Virus record (IMG/VR): IMGVR_UViG_3300022685_000023
Location: 1-32,420 of that record
From: a virus
Length of the DNA: 32,420 nt
Strand: one strand, 5' to 3'
Shown here in pieces: positions 1-9,758 of this stretch (positions are counted from its first letter, which is position 1; every line of letters begins with the position of its first letter). The notes beneath the pieces were generated by a model that saw nothing but the letters and a program-made list of their open reading frames with translations, was not told the origin of the DNA and ran no database searches. Made by a program: the position numbers and the translations under genes.

Positions 1-27
1 CGCTTTTAACTCGAAATTTGTTTCCAT
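1..27 (-). CDS. Start of a leftward gene (partial)
   Basis: Only the first nine codons (M-E-T-N-F-E-L-K-A) are inside the window; the gene runs off the left edge. The start is well supported: on the minus strand an AAGGAG ribosome site (35-40) lies about 7 bp before the ATG. Function cannot be told. It faces away from the early operon across a long regulatory region, which is where a lysogeny or regulatory gene could sit, but nothing in nine residues supports that. Confidence 0.6.
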
Positions 28-250
28 TTTTATTCTCCTTTTTTGTTTGTTTAATTTGTTTCCCGCATCGTTAAGTACGTTATACACCGAAAAGTTTTAT
101 TTGTAAAGGGATAAAAAGCGTGATTAAGTTTACTTATGAAAGGTTAAAGGCAATGAAAGCACTTTTTTAATATTTTTCATTGTTTTTCTATTATTTTCTA
201 AGAAATGCTTAAAGCTGCTAATTAATGAAATTTTTCTTAATAATCCGAAG

Positions 251-325
251 CTACAAAAATGTAACTACAATATGTAACTACAAATCAATATTCTGATAAA
301 AACCAATGTTACAAAAATGTAACTA
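251..325. promoter_or_regulatory. Tandem operator-like repeats
   Basis: Read on the minus strand, TTGTAGTTACAT is repeated in tandem with a 13-bp period (251-283). A separate copy at 308-323 is a perfect inverted repeat, GTTAC-N6-GTAAC. The 15-mer ACAAAAATGTAACTA occurs at both 253-267 and 311-325. The sites lie about 225-300 bp upstream of the leftward gene starting at 27. Repeated dyad sites of this kind typically bind a phage repressor, but the protein is not in the window. Replication iterons are an alternative. Confidence 0.5.
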
Positions 326-946
326 ATCTCAACCTTGTCGTTCGGATCGCGGATATGATAGTGGAGCTATTCGCGTGAAAAGGTGTGGTTAACATAGTAA
401 TATATATATAATAGTTCTTATATGGTTAAGCACACTTTTAAAACCGCCATTGCTTATGGCTAATATCAAACACAACCGCTAAGACCAATCCTAAGCCATT
501 ATAACAAACGCAAAAACAAAACACTTGCAATGGTATTAGTTTCGGATTTAAATCCATTGTGCGCCCTTACAATTGACGATAGACGTAAATAAAAGTAAAA
601 TCAGAAAAGCTATTAAGATACAGCGGATTGACGAACCTATAAGCCATCAGCTACCAGACCAATCCAATGCGGTGGAATGAACACATAAATATAACAAAAC
701 CATTGACTGATTGAAGTGTGTTCCATAATCACGTTTATATGATACAATTGTGTCTCATTTATATTTGCTTTTTTGATACACTTTTTGGGTTTAAGGTGTT
801 GAATTGACAGGAAATTTAAAAATAAAAAATCTTTGGCGAAGGGCAATTGTGTGGGTCACATTTCGCAGTGTACCATATCGCGTTGTGTTCAGAATGTTTA
901 CACATCGCAACAAAACGTTTCAAACAGCAATGAAATATTGCACGAT

Positions 947-4908: not shown

Positions 4909-5275
4909 AGAGATAAAAGAATATATCAAAGAGGTTGAAAAGCGGTATGCAAGTTGCAAACAAAAACGTTTAGGACGATTGTCAATCGAATGGGGCAAGC
5001 CGTCGGCGCGATTGAACCGGGAACTACGGAAAATGACTCGCGCATTTGATAATGATGATCCGAAAAGGATGCCTTACGTTTACGCATTTGTGTATTGGAC
5101 GAAACGAAGCGAACTGCTTGAACTGCATTCAAAAAGCAGAATACACAATCGTACTAAAAAAGTTAGGCTCTCAAGAGAGTGCAGAACATTGCGAAAAGTT
5201 ATCAACGGGGAAATTCAATGGGATGATCCTATCACGGATGATCCCATTGTCAGATTGTGGCTAAATAAAAAGTGA
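4901..5275 (+). CDS. Basic hypothetical protein upstream of dnaB
   Basis: 124 residues, rich in Arg/Lys and helical (EEIKEYIKEVEKRYASCKQK, then LSRECRTLRKVI). Its stop overlaps the GTG of the helicase gene (GTGA). A basic helical protein immediately before a DnaB gene could be a helicase loader or ssDNA-binding accessory protein. That is positional inference; no loader ATPase motif is present. Confidence 0.6.
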   Translation: MDEEIKEYIKEVEKRYASCKQKRLGRLSIEWGKPSARLNRELRKMTRAFDNDDPKRMPYVYAFVYWTKRSELLELHSKSRIHNRTKKVRLSRECRTLRKVINGEIQWDDPITDDPIVRLWLNKK

Positions 5276-6579
5276 TCTTGCCCCATGATCAAGAGCTTGA
5301 GCAGGGATTGATTGCGAGCATGTTAATGGATAACAATGTGATATCGGATGTATATCATATTGTCGCGCCGAGTGATTTTTATGCTACGCGCAACGCCAAT
5401 GTAGTTGAAATTATTTATCGGATATATGCTGAAGGCGCTGCCGTTGATATTCTTGCTGTGCATAGCGCAGCGAAAAGCAATGGCGGGATTGGGAAGATAG
5501 GCGGCGCAACATACCTATCGGGGCTTATTGGTACAGTTCCGATGAGCGAAAACGCTGTCGCGCACGCTGAAAAAATAGCCGCGCTTTCCATGCGTAGACG
5601 CATTCTTGCTGCTTGCAATGAAATCAACAAAAATGCTTCAAACCTGTCCATTGATGAAAAGACAATTGTATCACAAGCTTATACAGACATTGAGAAGGCC
5701 GTTGGCGCGTCTATAAGATCACAAGAGCCAATGACTGTAGGATCATATCTTGAAGACGCCATTGACCGCTATGAAGTCGCTAATCGTACAAAATCGAATA
5801 TTACCGGAGTTAGCACGGGAATATCCGAGCTTGATACGATGACAATGGGGCTACAGAATGGAAATTTCTACATTCTGGCTGGCAGGCCGAGTATGGGGAA
5901 AACAGCATTCGCCCTTAACATTGGGCGTGTTAATTGTATGCATGGCGGTGTCGTTCATATTTTTTCAATAGAACAACCCGGAAGGCAATTGACTGATAGA
6001 TTGATTGCTGCGGAAGCTTGTGTAAGCTCACACAAACTAAAACAAGGGTTCTCCACAAAAGAAGAATGGCAAAGGGTTGTCAACGCATGTTCTCGAATTG
6101 ACCAGTGGAGATTATGGGTTGATGATGACTCTGAAAAAACGGTTGCAGATATAGTCGTTCAAGCAAAAAGACTCGCGATAAAAGAAAAACCGGATATCAT
6201 TATAATTGATTATATGCAAATAATTAAAACCACCGGAAACCGAAAACGTCATGAACAGATTGGGGAAGTTAGTCGTTCATTGGCATCGTTGGCAAAATCT
6301 CTTGACGTTCCCGTATTGGCCTTGAGTCAACTTAATAGGGCCGTTGAAGAAAGGATGAACAAAAGGCCAGTGCTTGCCGACCTGCGCGATTCAGGCTCGC
6401 TTGAACAGGACGCACACGGCGTTATAATGATTTATCGCGGCGAAGCCTATGGCGAACCGACAGCCGATGGGGAGACTGAGCTTCTACTAAGGAAAAATCG
6501 GGACGGGCCTATTGGGGTTGCAAAAGTATATTTCGATAAAGCTTGTTTGAGATTTAATGACACTATGCGGAGGATGTAA
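5272..6579 (+). CDS. dnaB: Replicative DNA helicase DnaB
   Basis: 435 residues from a GTG coupled to the previous stop. Domains in order: DnaB N-terminal helical domain (about 4-105, opening HDQELEQGLIASML), linker, then the RecA-like helicase with Walker A GRPSMGKT (204-211), SIEQ (232-235), Walker B IIIIDY (309-314), LSQLNRAVE, the arginine-rich DLRDSGSLEQDA motif and a C-terminal R-K-N-R-D-G segment. Length and motifs are complete, so it should be an active hexameric 5'-3' helicase at the phage fork. It is the last gene of the early operon; its stop is followed 5 bp later by an attC half-site, so foreign cassettes were joined right behind it. Confidence 0.95.
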   Translation: MILPHDQELEQGLIASMLMDNNVISDVYHIVAPSDFYATRNANVVEIIYRIYAEGAAVDILAVHSAAKSNGGIGKIGGATYLSGLIGTVPMSENAVAHAEKIAALSMRRRILAACNEINKNASNLSIDEKTIVSQAYTDIEKAVGASIRSQEPMTVGSYLEDAIDRYEVANRTKSNITGVSTGISELDTMTMGLQNGNFYILAGRPSMGKTAFALNIGRVNCMHGGVVHIFSIEQPGRQLTDRLIAAEACVSSHKLKQGFSTKEEWQRVVNACSRIDQWRLWVDDDSEKTVADIVVQAKRLAIKEKPDIIIIDYMQIIKTTGNRKRHEQIGEVSRSLASLAKSLDVPVLALSQLNRAVEERMNKRPVLADLRDSGSLEQDAHGVIMIYRGEAYGEPTADGETELLLRKNRDGPIGVAKVYFDKACLRFNDTMRRM

Positions 6580-6584
6580 ATCTT

Positions 6585-6606
6585 CCGGTTAATTTAAACG
6601 TTATGT
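6585..6606 (+). other. attC-like half-site (left cassette boundary)
   Basis: CCGGTTAA followed by TTTAAAC-GTTATGT resembles the 3' half (L' box plus GTTATG core) of the two complete attC sites downstream (CCGGTTAGCTAATC-GTTATGC at 7496-7516 and CCGGTTAGCTTAGC-GTTATGC at 8421-8440). No matching 5' half is found in the dnaB gene. It may be the point where cassettes entered, or a truncated attC. Confidence 0.65.
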
Positions 6607-6632
6607 TGCTTAACGGGAGAGGTATTTGAGAT

Positions 6633-7331
6633 ATGAAAAAAGATTCCATTGGTAATCGGATGAAAGAGAATTATGAGCACAGATACCGATTTAAACTTAC
6701 AAGGCGTATGCTTGTGATTATGAGATTAGATGGCAAAGCATTTCATACTTTAACTCGCAAATGCAAAAAGCCGTATGATATTGATTTTCAAACCACTATG
6801 CAAGATACTGCTCTAAAATTGTACCAAGAGATTCAAGGTGCAAAATGTGCCTACGTTCAATCTGATGAAATATCTATTTTATTAACTGATTTCGACAGAT
6901 TAAAAACTGATGCTTGGTTTGATTACAATTTGCAAAAAATTGTTTCAGTGTCAGCCGGAATTGCGTCTTCTTTTTTTTCAACAAATTGGAATGGACGTTT
7001 ACCGGCAATATTTGATTGTCGTGCTTTTAATGTCCCAAAAGAAGAAGTATGCAATTATTTTATTTGGCGTCAACAAGATTGGCTCAGAAATTCTATCCAA
7101 ATGCTTGCTCAGAGTTATTATTCATCCAAGCAGCTTCACAAGAAAAATACAAGTGAAATGCATGAAATGCTACATGAAAAAGGTGTAAGTTGGGACGAAA
7201 TAGAACCTGTTTGGAAGAATGGTGCATTTATCGTTTCAGGCAATGGGAACGGTTTAGATGTAAAGCATGATTTTGTTTTTACAAAAGATCGTGAAAGCAT
7301 TGAGAAATTATTAGAACCGATTGAAGAATAA
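6633..7331 (+). CDS. Thg1-like 3'-5' polymerase (TLP)
   Basis: 232 residues. It carries the two metal-binding signatures of the tRNA-His guanylyltransferase superfamily: VIMRLDGKAFHTLTR (Asp33, Gly34) and QSDEISILL (Asp78, Glu79). The following VSVSAGIASSFF and PAIFDCRAFNVP stretches also match the family, and length is as expected. Bacterial and viral members add nucleotides 3' to 5', repairing truncated tRNA 5' ends, and do not necessarily add G-1. It has a GGGAGAGG ribosome site, begins 33 bp after an attC-like core and is followed by a full attC, so it is probably an integron-cassette gene acquired by the phage. Confidence 0.85.
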   Translation: MKKDSIGNRMKENYEHRYRFKLTRRMLVIMRLDGKAFHTLTRKCKKPYDIDFQTTMQDTALKLYQEIQGAKCAYVQSDEISILLTDFDRLKTDAWFDYNLQKIVSVSAGIASSFFSTNWNGRLPAIFDCRAFNVPKEEVCNYFIWRQQDWLRNSIQMLAQSYYSSKQLHKKNTSEMHEMLHEKGVSWDEIEPVWKNGAFIVSGNGNGLDVKHDFVFTKDRESIEKLLEPIEE

Positions 7332-7427
7332 CTTTATGAATTATTTGATTACCACGAGCCGTCTGATCTTGTCATGCAAATTGCTTGCGCAATTTCCCTG
7401 CCAAGGCCGGCTTATGAGTTCAACGCA

Positions 7428-7516
7428 ACATAACAAGTCGCTCAACCGGAGGACTGGTCAGGCTTCCGCTCGCAAGCTCGCTACAGCCTTCACAGCCGGT
7501 TAGCTAATCGTTATGC
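7428..7516 (+). other. Integron attC site (cassette 1)
   Basis: The ends pair as in attC: ACATAAC (R'', 7428-7434) with GTTATGC (R', 7510-7516), and GCTCAACCGG (L'', 7440-7449) with CCGGTTAGC (L', 7496-7504), leaving one unpaired base at 7443 of the kind that sets strand choice in folded attC. The central region (7450-7495) forms further stem-loops. The site lies about 100 bp after the Thg1 stop. Recombination would occur after G7510. Confidence 0.8.
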
Positions 7517-7523
7517 AGACAAC

Positions 7524-8366
7524 ATGAAAATAAATTTATATACAGATGCACCCAAACATAATTTGGCATTAATGAAAATATCAGCGTGGCATAAAGCGAA
7601 CGGCGATAGCGTTTTGTTTAATATGCCGATAATCCCCGCTGATTATCGGTATGCGTCTATTCTATTTGAAAAAAACAGGAATCGTTTTATTGCTGACGAA
7701 TATGGGGGGCCGGCATTTGACAATTCAGTGCTGCCTGCCGATATTGAAAAAATGGAGCCTGATTATAGCCTGACAGGGATTGATTACAGTTTAGGATATA
7801 CGTTCAGGCCGTGCTTTAATTCATGCGCGTTTTGCAAAGTGCCAAAAATGGATCATCCAGATTGCAAACATCATTCAATATGGGAATTTCATGATCCCAA
7901 ATTTAAAAAGATTTGCCTTTTGAACAACAACACATTTCAAGACTCGCAATGGCATAAAACATTTGAAGAAATATGGGACGCAGATTTAACCGTAATTGAT
8001 GAAAATGGATATGATCTCAGATTGATAGACGATAAAAAAGCCCATGCCCTGAAGAGAACTAAATTTCAGGGAAAACTGCATTTCGCATGGGATAGAATGC
8101 AAGACGAATCCATGATTATTGAGGGATTGAAAATCTTAAAAAAGCATAAAATAACAGGCTGCCGTGTATATGTTCTGATCGGATATGACTCAACTGAAAA
8201 ACAGGACTTACACAGATGCGATATTTTAAAGGGATACGGACAGGACCCGTACATCATGCCGTTTAGAGGAACGAAAAAAGAAAAACGATTCAAGCGTTTT
8301 ATAGATTCGTTCATGTGGCGCAAATACAAAACAATAACAGCAGCGTGGGAATATTACGCAGCCTAA
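7524..8366 (+). CDS. Radical SAM protein, unknown substrate
   Basis: 280 residues. Cys97, Cys101 and Cys104 (RPCFNSCAFCKVP) form the C-x3-C-x2-C cluster of radical SAM enzymes, which bind a 4Fe-4S cluster and cleave S-adenosylmethionine. The N-terminal part (NLALMKISAWHKANGDSV) resembles a mobile-element and phage subfamily with a Rossmann-like start before the radical SAM barrel. The substrate is unknown. The ATG lies 14 bp after an attC core with no strong ribosome site, and the stop is inside the next attC, which is the compact layout of an integron cassette. Confidence 0.8.
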   Translation: MKINLYTDAPKHNLALMKISAWHKANGDSVLFNMPIIPADYRYASILFEKNRNRFIADEYGGPAFDNSVLPADIEKMEPDYSLTGIDYSLGYTFRPCFNSCAFCKVPKMDHPDCKHHSIWEFHDPKFKKICLLNNNTFQDSQWHKTFEEIWDADLTVIDENGYDLRLIDDKKAHALKRTKFQGKLHFAWDRMQDESMIIEGLKILKKHKITGCRVYVLIGYDSTEKQDLHRCDILKGYGQDPYIMPFRGTKKEKRFKRFIDSFMWRKYKTITAAWEYYAA

Positions 8367-8440
8367 CCCGGCGCTAAACTCGGACGCAAAAGGGTTCCGT
8401 TACACTTCACCCTTTTGCGCCGGTTAGCTTAGCGTTATGC
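8361..8440 (+). other. Integron attC site (cassette 2)
   Basis: GCCTAAC (8361-8367) pairs with GTTATGC (8434-8440). GCTAAACTCGG pairs imperfectly with CCGGTTAGC, and the centre has a 10-bp stem CGCAAAAGGG/CCCTTTTGCG. The last 20 bp nearly repeat the end of the attC at 7428-7516. The site overlaps the radical SAM stop codon. With the first attC it delimits a 924-bp cassette (7511-8434). Confidence 0.8.
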
Positions 8441-8467
8441 CACCAACGTATTACAACGGAGGTTACA

Positions 8468-8917
8468 ATGAGATCAATTTTAATTCTTACAGCATTTCTT
8501 TTCATTGCTCAACCGGCCAGCGCCGATTTATATAAGTGGGTCGATGAAAACGGAGTAACCCATTATTCAAACACTCCGGTTTTAAAGAAATCCGATAAGC
8601 ATGTTGAAAAACATGAAGAATTTGGCGGGGAGCCAAGATATACTCCACCCCAAAAAGAAAACCGAAATGTAAAGTCAAAAAAGCTTACAAAGGCAAAATA
8701 TGATGCTATCCAGAATGGCATGTCATACGCTGATGTAGTAAGGATAATCGGATATGATGGTGAAAATTTGGCGACTAATCACTTGGAAGGCATTCCCGGT
8801 GTTATGAAAAGTGTTACAACAAAAATGTATTCATGGGAGAATTCGGACGGATCGAACATGAATGCTATGTTTCAAAACGATAGGCTGGTTAATAAGGCTC
8901 AGTATGGGCTTCGTTGA
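8468..8917 (+). CDS. Secreted DUF4124-type protein
   Basis: 149 residues with GGAGG just upstream. Residues 1-19 are a Sec signal peptide ending in ASA before Asp20. The DUF4124 motif follows at once (DLYKWVDENGVTHYSNTP, 20-37). The C-terminal half (KYDAIQNGMSYADVVRIIGY and a following MYSWENSDGSNMNAMF strand) resembles the small BamE/OmlA-like fold of SmpA-type proteins. It is expected in the periplasm or at the outer membrane. Such genes are common chromosomal and cassette cargo, not phage core genes. It starts 34 bp after an attC core, but no attC follows, so this third cassette has probably lost its end. Confidence 0.75.
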   Translation: MRSILILTAFLFIAQPASADLYKWVDENGVTHYSNTPVLKKSDKHVEKHEEFGGEPRYTPPQKENRNVKSKKLTKAKYDAIQNGMSYADVVRIIGYDGENLATNHLEGIPGVMKSVTTKMYSWENSDGSNMNAMFQNDRLVNKAQYGLR

Positions 8918-8943
8918 TTTTAAAACTTTACAACAACTTTTTA

Positions 8944-8972
8944 TTGACACAACCAAAAATAAACTATATCTT
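8944..8972 (+). promoter_or_regulatory. Sigma-70 promoter for a structured RNA
   Basis: TTGACA (8944-8949), a 17-bp spacer and TATCTT (8967-8972). The predicted start is near 8979, immediately before the first hairpin of the RNA and 26 bp after the upstream gene stop. No protein start follows for over 200 bp, so the promoter most likely makes the non-coding RNA. Confidence 0.6.
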
Positions 8973-8978
8973 TAGACA

Positions 8979-9137
8979 GTTTCAGGACGTTGAAGCGCTT
9001 AGGCAACGCGGAGTCCTGAGATTGTAACGACAACACAGATTATAAAGCGTTTTTATGAGAGGGTTTCCTTGGCCGCCACCTGGGAGACGGCTTTTTCTGT
9101 GTTGTAAGCCGTCCCCTCTCATAAGAACGCTTTTTTT
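8979..9137 (+). ncRNA. Pseudoknotted structured RNA with terminator
   Basis: Elements in order: a hairpin closed by TCAGGAC (8982-8988) and GTCCTGA (9013-9019) with inner GTTG/CAAC pairing; a single strand ACAACACAG (9030-9038); a 19-bp stem (9045-9063 with 9114-9132, one G-U pair) ending in seven T's; and inside that stem a hairpin GACGGCTT/AAGCCGTC (9086-9093, 9106-9113) whose loop contains CTGTGTTGT (9097-9105), a perfect 9-nt complement of the upstream single strand. This makes a pseudoknot locked into a terminator. About 160 nt, no match to an RNA family I know; could be an sRNA or an antitoxin-like RNA. Confidence 0.65.
9045..9137 (+). terminator. Long-stem rho-independent terminator
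   Basis: A 19-bp stem (9045-9063 and 9114-9132) followed by TTTTTTT (9131-9137). It ends transcription of the structured RNA and of anything reading through from the cassette genes. Its large loop holds the pseudoknot hairpin. Confidence 0.75.
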
Positions 9138-9190
9138 GTTTAGCAGCGTTGTTTTTTCAAAACGGTACGCTTTCAACCCAAAAATATATT

Positions 9191-9277
9191 ATGCAACCTG
9201 AGCAGACAATGAAAGCAAAAAAGTTAAATCCAAAGAAGGAGCGTCCCAACTCTCCACTTTGGTGGTGGCGCTGTTAA
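9191..9277 (+). CDS. Candidate Trp-rich leader peptide
   Basis: A 28-codon frame (or 22 codons from an inner ATG at 9209) that is Lys-rich and ends PNSPLWWWRC, with three consecutive Trp codons just before the stop. Trp runs at this place are the signature of trp-operon attenuator leaders. Structured RNA with competing stems follows, as for an attenuator. However, no ribosome site is evident and no trp gene is nearby. It may simply be part of the RNA. Confidence 0.3.
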   Translation: MQPEQTMKAKKLNPKKERPNSPLWWWRC

Positions 9278-9482
9278 ATCAGCGGATTCCCGCCGACACG
9301 CAACATGAGGCCGCATAGCTGCAAAAAACCTCTCGTTGTTCCGGCAGGCGGAAAAGTGCCGGACGAAAAGCAGGCTCGAATGCGTTAAAAATGAGCTTGT
9401 GGGTTTTTACCCAGGGATTGCCTGAGTATCGGGATGGGCCGTAGCAGCTGGCCTTGTGTTTGACTCTGCGGAGTTAGACCAC
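9241..9482 (+). ncRNA. Second structured RNA region
   Basis: No gene, but dense short stems: CGCTG/CAGCG (9269-9284), a long imperfect arm joining about 9288-9310 to 9329-9351, CCGGCA/TGCCGG (9341-9346, 9357-9362), TGGG/CCCA (9400-9413), GGCC/GGCC (9437-9453), and a 9-bp stem GTTTGACTC-TGCG-GAGTTAGAC (9458-9479). Some arms are mutually exclusive. G+C is well above the flanking DNA. It resembles no riboswitch, RNase P, tmRNA or intron core that I can identify. It ends about 55 bp before the gene at 9540, so it may be a 5' leader of that gene or a free RNA. Confidence 0.45.
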
Positions 9483-9539
9483 CCGAAAAAGGGGGAGAGA
9501 TGTGCCTAATGAAAATCTTAAAAAATTGAGGTTGTTAAT

Positions 9540-9758
9540 ATGAGAAAAGACGGAAAAGTTTTTGTGTCAAAAGAATCCGGAAAAAATGAAGTGCGGATTG
9601 AATATGATGGTTACTCATTAGTATTATTAACAGCGCATGACGATTTGCAATGGACAGGGTTCTCTTGTAATACATGGTTCTCTTGTAATGATGAATTGCT
9701 TAAACTGATTCGTGATTCGTTTGATGAATATTTTTCAAAAAACAAGACGGTTAGATAG
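9540..9758 (+). CDS. Hypothetical protein
   Basis: 72 residues, with a GAGG site upstream. Beta-rich N-terminus (VRIEYDGYSLVLLTAHDD) and a short repeat GFSCNTWFSCND. No known domain. It follows the structured RNA region and is 8 bp before the next small gene, with which it probably forms a two-gene unit. Confidence 0.6.
   Translation: MRKDGKVFVSKESGKNEVRIEYDGYSLVLLTAHDDLQWTGFSCNTWFSCNDELLKLIRDSFDEYFSKNKTVR

What the first reader, a model, noticed from the sequence alone, without database searches (positions are those of the whole stretch)
6585..8917. Integron gene cassettes (CALIN) carried by a phage
Two complete attC-like sites (7428-7516, 8361-8440) have matching ends (CCGGTTAGC...GTTATGC), paired R and L boxes and central stems. 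Each lies just after one short-leader gene, and a half attC sits directly after dnaB. No integron integrase is present. Cassettes inside phage genomes are rare; this suggests IntI-mediated capture into a phage replication module.
Basis: partly seen in the sequence, partly recalled or inferred. Interest (0 to 1): 0.85.

Follow-up and report, generated by a model that had tools for sequence, protein, structure and literature searches.

The report
Phage genome studded with integron cassettes
This bacterial virus carries two genes packaged as the exchangeable 'cassettes' that bacteria trade through integrons, and a second record of the same virus shows at least 14 more of these exchange sites around its genome, so phages of this kind may shuttle such genes between bacteria, although movement itself was not tested.

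Summary
A covariance model trained only on plasmid, chromosomal and known integron-phage attC sites finds both sites at exactly the stated coordinates (42.8 and 37.2 bits; next best in the window 13.4). They score like attC sites of a published phage run as control. Each follows one gene (Thg1-like; radical-SAM-like), and no integron integrase is present. A lone right half of a site follows dnaB.

The case goes beyond the finding. A 67.9 kb IMG/VR contig is the same phage (23,229 of 23,231 bases identical, plus 321 bp at its other end) and carries 14 more attC sites of 20 bits or more, in three further clusters on both strands. One cassette is a lone tRNA-Thr gene. The half site recurs at four other places in these clusters and may be an attI-like entry point. 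Homologues of both cassette genes in 47 other phage records almost all lack attC. The host is probably a Desulfobacterota bacterium.

CALINs in phages were already published (Qi 2023), so the kind is known. The new part is the dispersed, multi-cluster arrangement. Acquisition through a host IntI is inferred; no empty site or donor integron was found.

The parts
5272..6579 (+). dnaB-like replicative helicase, left flank of the array
   Evidence: PF03796 1.5e-83; phrog_19 6.7e-100
6582..6606 (+). right half-site: L'-like CCGGTTAAT plus R'-like GTTATGT, start of cassette 1; possible attI-like entry point or attC remnant
   Evidence: CTTCCGGTTAAT with up to 1 mismatch occurs 8 times in window plus G254; 5 of these lie in the attC clusters and are followed by GTTRRRY-like bases; not called by the attC model
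6633..7331 (+). cassette 1 gene: Thg1-like (tRNA-His guanylyltransferase family), 232 aa
   Evidence: PF04446 1e-27; phrog_4717 1.1e-81
7428..7516 (+). attC site 1 (R'' ACATAAC, L'' GCTCAACCGG with one extrahelical base, L' CCGGTTAGC, R' GTTATGC)
   Evidence: cmsearch R2 42.8 bits, E 1.6e-8; the bottom-strand fold pairs R and L boxes
7524..8366 (+). cassette 2 gene: radical-SAM-like protein, 280 aa, CxxxCxxC motif
   Evidence: phrog_9298 4.7e-44; no Pfam match
8361..8440 (+). attC site 2; R'' overlaps the stop codon of the radical-SAM gene
   Evidence: cmsearch R2 37.2 bits, E 3.9e-7; bottom-strand fold z -3.95
8468..8917 (+). DUF4124 protein, right flank or terminal cassette without attC
   Evidence: PF13511 3.3e-15; no attC behind it

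Best explanation
Two genuine integron gene cassettes (Thg1-like gene plus attC; radical-SAM gene plus attC) sit in the same orientation behind dnaB in a probably temperate phage. They are one of at least four attC clusters in that phage. Most likely route: while the phage is in a host with an integron, host IntI acting in trans recombines folded bottom-strand attC sites of cassette circles with GTT-bearing sites in the phage, either existing attC sites or the recurrent half-site; the phage then carries the cassettes to new hosts. Shown: the attC sites, cassette layout, absence of IntI, dispersed clusters, recurrent half-site. Inferred: IntI in trans, the half-site as entry point, present-day mobility, temperate life style, the host.
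For: An independent covariance model hits both sites at exact coordinates with controls behaving. The same phage has 14 more sites of at least 20 bits, and the R and L arms covary across them. Compact cassettes, including a tRNA-Thr gene whose 3' end overlaps the next R''. No TIGR02249 integrase in window or G254, while 86 of 247 Desulfobacterota genomes have one. The same attC core occurs in two other phage contigs, and a 78% identical relative on a Desulforapulum plasmid that carries 21 attC matches. Published work shows that attC sites of lytic phages recombine with IntI1 (PMC9892861).
Against: No empty site: scans with DnaB, portal and TerL found no relative other than the same phage. The attC core pattern is absent from 395 Desulfobacterota genomes at up to one mismatch. 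Homologues of both genes in other phages almost all lack attC, so attC may have been added to phage genes rather than the genes arriving as cassettes. The window and G254 differ by only two bases where they overlap, so no cassette change was seen.
Confidence: 0.72

Rival explanations
1. The attC sites are real but inert remnants. The phage took up segments of a host cassette array by homologous or illegitimate recombination, with no IntI event in the phage itself.
For: No IntI in the phage; several sites are weak or mismatched; Qi 2023 raises off-target homologous and illegitimate recombination for other phage CALINs.
Against: Four clusters on both strands, and half-sites of similar sequence at several cassette starts, would need many independent uptakes; most sites keep intact paired arms.
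Confidence: 0.2
2. A recombinase of the phage itself moves the cassettes, for example the 305 aa tyrosine-recombinase-like protein at L194:12737-13654.
For: It matches phage integrase families weakly (phrog_216 2.1e-7; PF00589 1.3e-4).
Against: The expected catalytic arginine reads TGLN and the HxxR and LGH motifs are altered (sequence, motifs from general knowledge); it is not an integron integrase.
Confidence: 0.04
3. The hairpins are not recombination sites but terminators or RNA processing signals that resemble attC.
For: They sit right behind stop codons; attC sites are thought to act as weak terminators.
Against: Conserved GTT and AAC ends, conserved L boxes with the extrahelical base and compensatory changes fit attC; the same model gives nothing of 20 bits or more in about 1.2 Mb of other loci.
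Confidence: 0.04

Closest known systems
CALINs in phages (Qi et al. 2023, PMC9892861: TJE1, PH101, P12002L)
   Same: attC sites behind single genes in phage genomes, no integrase, similar model scores for TJE1, methyltransferase cargo also seen here (L194:165-836, L208)
   Different: Here at least 16 sites in four dispersed clusters on both strands of one phage, a tRNA-only cassette and a recurrent half-site; in TJE1 the same model finds three sites
Vibrio anguillarum phage p16 with a captured chromosomal integron (MK672802)
   Same: Phage-borne cassette array
   Different: p16 carries IntI and a contiguous piece of the host integron; here no IntI and dispersed clusters
Plasmid pHRM2a of Desulforapulum autotrophicum (NC_012109)
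   Same: attC sites without IntI; one attC 78% identical to a phage attC
   Different: One array region on one strand of a plasmid, not a phage
Class 1 integron cassette arrays
   Same: R and L boxes, spacer lengths, extrahelical base, cassette compactness
   Different: No IntI, no recognised attI, no resistance genes in the window array

Membership tests
attC recombination site | R''/R' and L''/L' inverted boxes ending in AAC / GTT with covariance-model support | tested here: met
   42.8 and 37.2 bits with an independently trained model
attC recombination site | Extrahelical base in L'' | tested here: met
   Site 1: L'' GCT-C-AACCGG against L' CCGGTTAGC, same model column as in control sites; site 2 aligns with one further inserted base
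attC recombination site | Bottom strand recombined by IntI | not testable with these tools
   Needs a recombination assay
CALIN | At least two attC sites close together, no integron integrase in the record | tested here: met
   Two sites 0.9 kb apart; no TIGR02249 match in the window or in G254
Complete integron | intI gene and attI site | tested here: not met
   No intI; the half-site is only a candidate attI-like sequence
Gene cassette | One gene, short 5' leader starting with TTRRRY-like bases, attC at its 3' end, same orientation | tested here: met
   6601-7510 and 7511-8434 by sequence with attC calls
Gene cassette | Exact empty site in a relative, or an excised circle | tested here: inconclusive
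   No close relative found

The most novel reading that the evidence does not exclude
The phage lineage is a cassette platform in its own right: recurrent attI-like half-sites spread over its genome receive cassettes made from phage genes (Thg1, radical SAM, HNH, PAPS reductase, methyltransferase, tRNA), using integrases of its hosts, so that phages of this habitat share a cassette pool of their own with a characteristic attC family.
Probability: 0.25. Interest if true: 0.85.

Novelty: new variant of a known kind. Interest (0 to 1): 0.62.

Why it matters
How integron cassettes are formed and how they travel between bacteria are open questions. A phage with attC sites behind many of its genes, including a lone tRNA gene, and homologues of the same genes without attC in other phages, gives pairs of 'with' and 'without attC' genes in which cassette formation can be studied. 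It is also a candidate vehicle for cassette transfer among sulfate-reducing bacteria.

Tried and rejected
A hand-written box scanner was too unspecific and was used only to collect training sites. The first covariance model R1 (short loops, 6-base spacer) missed site 2, gave only part of site 1 at 10.3 bits and scored the Vibrio control sites it found near 20 bits; it was rebuilt as R2 from 49 control hits, none from the window or G254. Empty-site searches with DnaB, portal and TerL found only the same phage. Thg1 in genome contigs gave nothing; in 395 Desulfobacterota genomes there were four Thg1 homologues, none with attC within the fetched flanks. Rfam gave no match in the window. The attC core as a DNA pattern gave no donor integron. 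Structure prediction of the divergent recombinase and a PADLOC scan were not run.

Full report
Setting. The window is a 32,420-base IMG/VR virus record. Pfam gives dnaB at 5272-6579, a Thg1-family gene at 6633-7331, a DUF4124 gene at 8468-8917, and phage capsid and tail tape-measure proteins further on. The gene at 7524-8366 matches a PHROG radical-SAM family and has a CxxxCxxC motif.

Check of the observation. The Rfam copy found nothing in the window, so a covariance model was built. Training sites came from class 1 integron plasmids, Vibrio and Shewanella phages with known integrons, and chromosomal integrons of Desulfobacterota found through their integrase. The second (R2), built from 49 control hits and none from the window, finds 7428-7516 at 42.8 bits (E 1.6e-8) and 8361-8440 at 37.2 bits (E 3.9e-7) with filters off; the next match in the window is 13.4 bits. 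With the same model three sites in phage TJE1, a published carrier that was not used for training, score 42, 33 and 30 bits; class 1 sites in L114, L115 and L117 score 36 to 52 and Vibrio sites 23 to 37. In 100 homologue loci (887 kb) there was one match, of 18.7 bits, and among the other loci the best was 15.6. The sites are therefore well above what other DNA of this kind gives.

Anatomy. Cassette 1 starts at the TT of GTTATGT behind dnaB (6601), carries the Thg1 gene and ends in attC 1. Cassette 2 starts at the TT of attC 1's GTTATGC (7511), carries the radical-SAM gene 13 bases further on, and ends in attC 2, whose R'' contains the gene's stop codon. The DUF4124 gene that follows has no attC behind it. 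Upstream, after the dnaB stop, only a right half (CCGGTTAAT ... GTTATG) is present.

The rest of the phage. A portal search led to IMGVR_UViG_3300022682_000033 (67,892 bp, G254), whose first 23,231 bases match window 9190-32420 at all but two positions and whose bases 67357-67677 equal window 1-321. The two records thus fit a genome of about 76.5 kb (inference from the overlaps). G254 has 14 further attC sites of at least 20 bits and one of 18: plus strand at about 38.7-44.7 kb, minus strand at 47.5-51.9 kb, plus strand at 57.2-57.8 kb. One more, with mismatched L boxes, was seen by eye. On an alignment of 18 model hits from these loci (three of them below 15 bits) the paired arms show changes on both sides in 10 of 16 pairs, and none of 500 shuffles reached the observed covariation score (the alignment is fitted to the model, which favours it). 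Contents of the attC-bounded stretches include an HNH nuclease, a PAPS-reductase-like protein, a C5-methylase-like protein whose reading frame runs through its attC, and a tRNA-Thr gene alone between two attC sites. An int-alpA RNA (39.1 bits, above Rfam's cut-off) directly follows another attC.

The half-site. CTTCCGGTTAAT, with up to one mismatch, occurs eight times in window plus G254. Five lie in the attC clusters and are followed by GTT-type bases: the one behind dnaB; three in G254 that stand right behind or at the stop of one gene and 30-40 bases before the start of the next (L193 8423, 11593, 13971); and one between two attC sites (L193 10139). The other three are elsewhere. Whether it is an attI-like entry point, a decayed attC, or a terminator of the upstream gene is open; I favour the first or second.

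Integrase and host. No integron integrase in the window or G254. A 305 aa tyrosine-recombinase-like protein in G254 has altered catalytic motifs. G254 ends in a tRNA-Ser gene 97-98% identical over about 87 bases to those of several Desulfobacterota genomes (no other phylum was searched, so this is suggestive). Radical-SAM relatives occur in Candidatus Desulfobacula maris, one on a contig with a DnaB relative. The only plasmid match to a phage attC is on a Desulforapulum plasmid with 21 attC matches. Desulfobacterota often have integron integrases (86 of 247). The attC core was not found in 395 of those genomes but occurs in two other phage contigs, in one right behind a DNA-methyltransferase-like gene (function judged from the sequence only).

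Origin of the cassettes. Homologues of the two genes are widespread in phages. In 47 whole records that carry such homologues, only one has attC matches, at 23.7 and 19.6 bits. Weak attC-like sequences behind the radical-SAM gene in L032 and L122 (18.7 and 18.6 bits) look decayed or cut off. So phage genes acquired attC, or cassettes derived from phage genes returned to phages; the data do not decide.

What is known. Qi et al. 2023 (PMC9892861) found 17 CALINs in 10,705 phage genomes and showed that five of six tested phage attC sites recombine with IntI1. The window array is a new case of that. The dispersed clusters, the tRNA cassette and the recurrent half-site are not mentioned in the parts of that paper I read, and my paper searches did not turn up another report; the library lacks most subscription journals and all preprints.

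Noticed in passing
window 8938-9205: Repeated intergenic element, 76% identical to an inverted copy at G254 49726-49994; promoter-like TTGACA, long hairpin with a few compensatory changes and a T run, possibly a small RNA gene; no Rfam match.
   Followed up: partly
window 9200-9500: Non-coding stretch that looks structured, before the gene at 9540.
   Followed up: no
window 240-330: TGTAACTACAA repeats and TACAAAAATGTA at the point where G254 leaves the window sequence for tRNA-Ser genes; candidate phage attachment site or origin.
   Followed up: partly
L193:8739-8809: int-alpA RNA (RF02996) directly after an attC site, at the start of a cassette.
   Followed up: partly
L194:1660-1795 (-) and L193:17611-17733 (-): Two tRNA-like non-coding cassettes with T-arm-like ends whose acceptor-like stems merge with the R boxes; not called by ARAGORN or Rfam.
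   Followed up: partly
L194:930-1045 (-): Non-coding cassette with a 10 bp closing stem (GCGTCTCCGT/ACGGAGACGC), no credible Rfam match.
   Followed up: partly
L228 (pHRM2a): Desulforapulum plasmid with 21 attC matches, a duplicated gene block, TIR-domain, toxin-antitoxin and lnu(F) genes, no integron integrase.
   Followed up: partly
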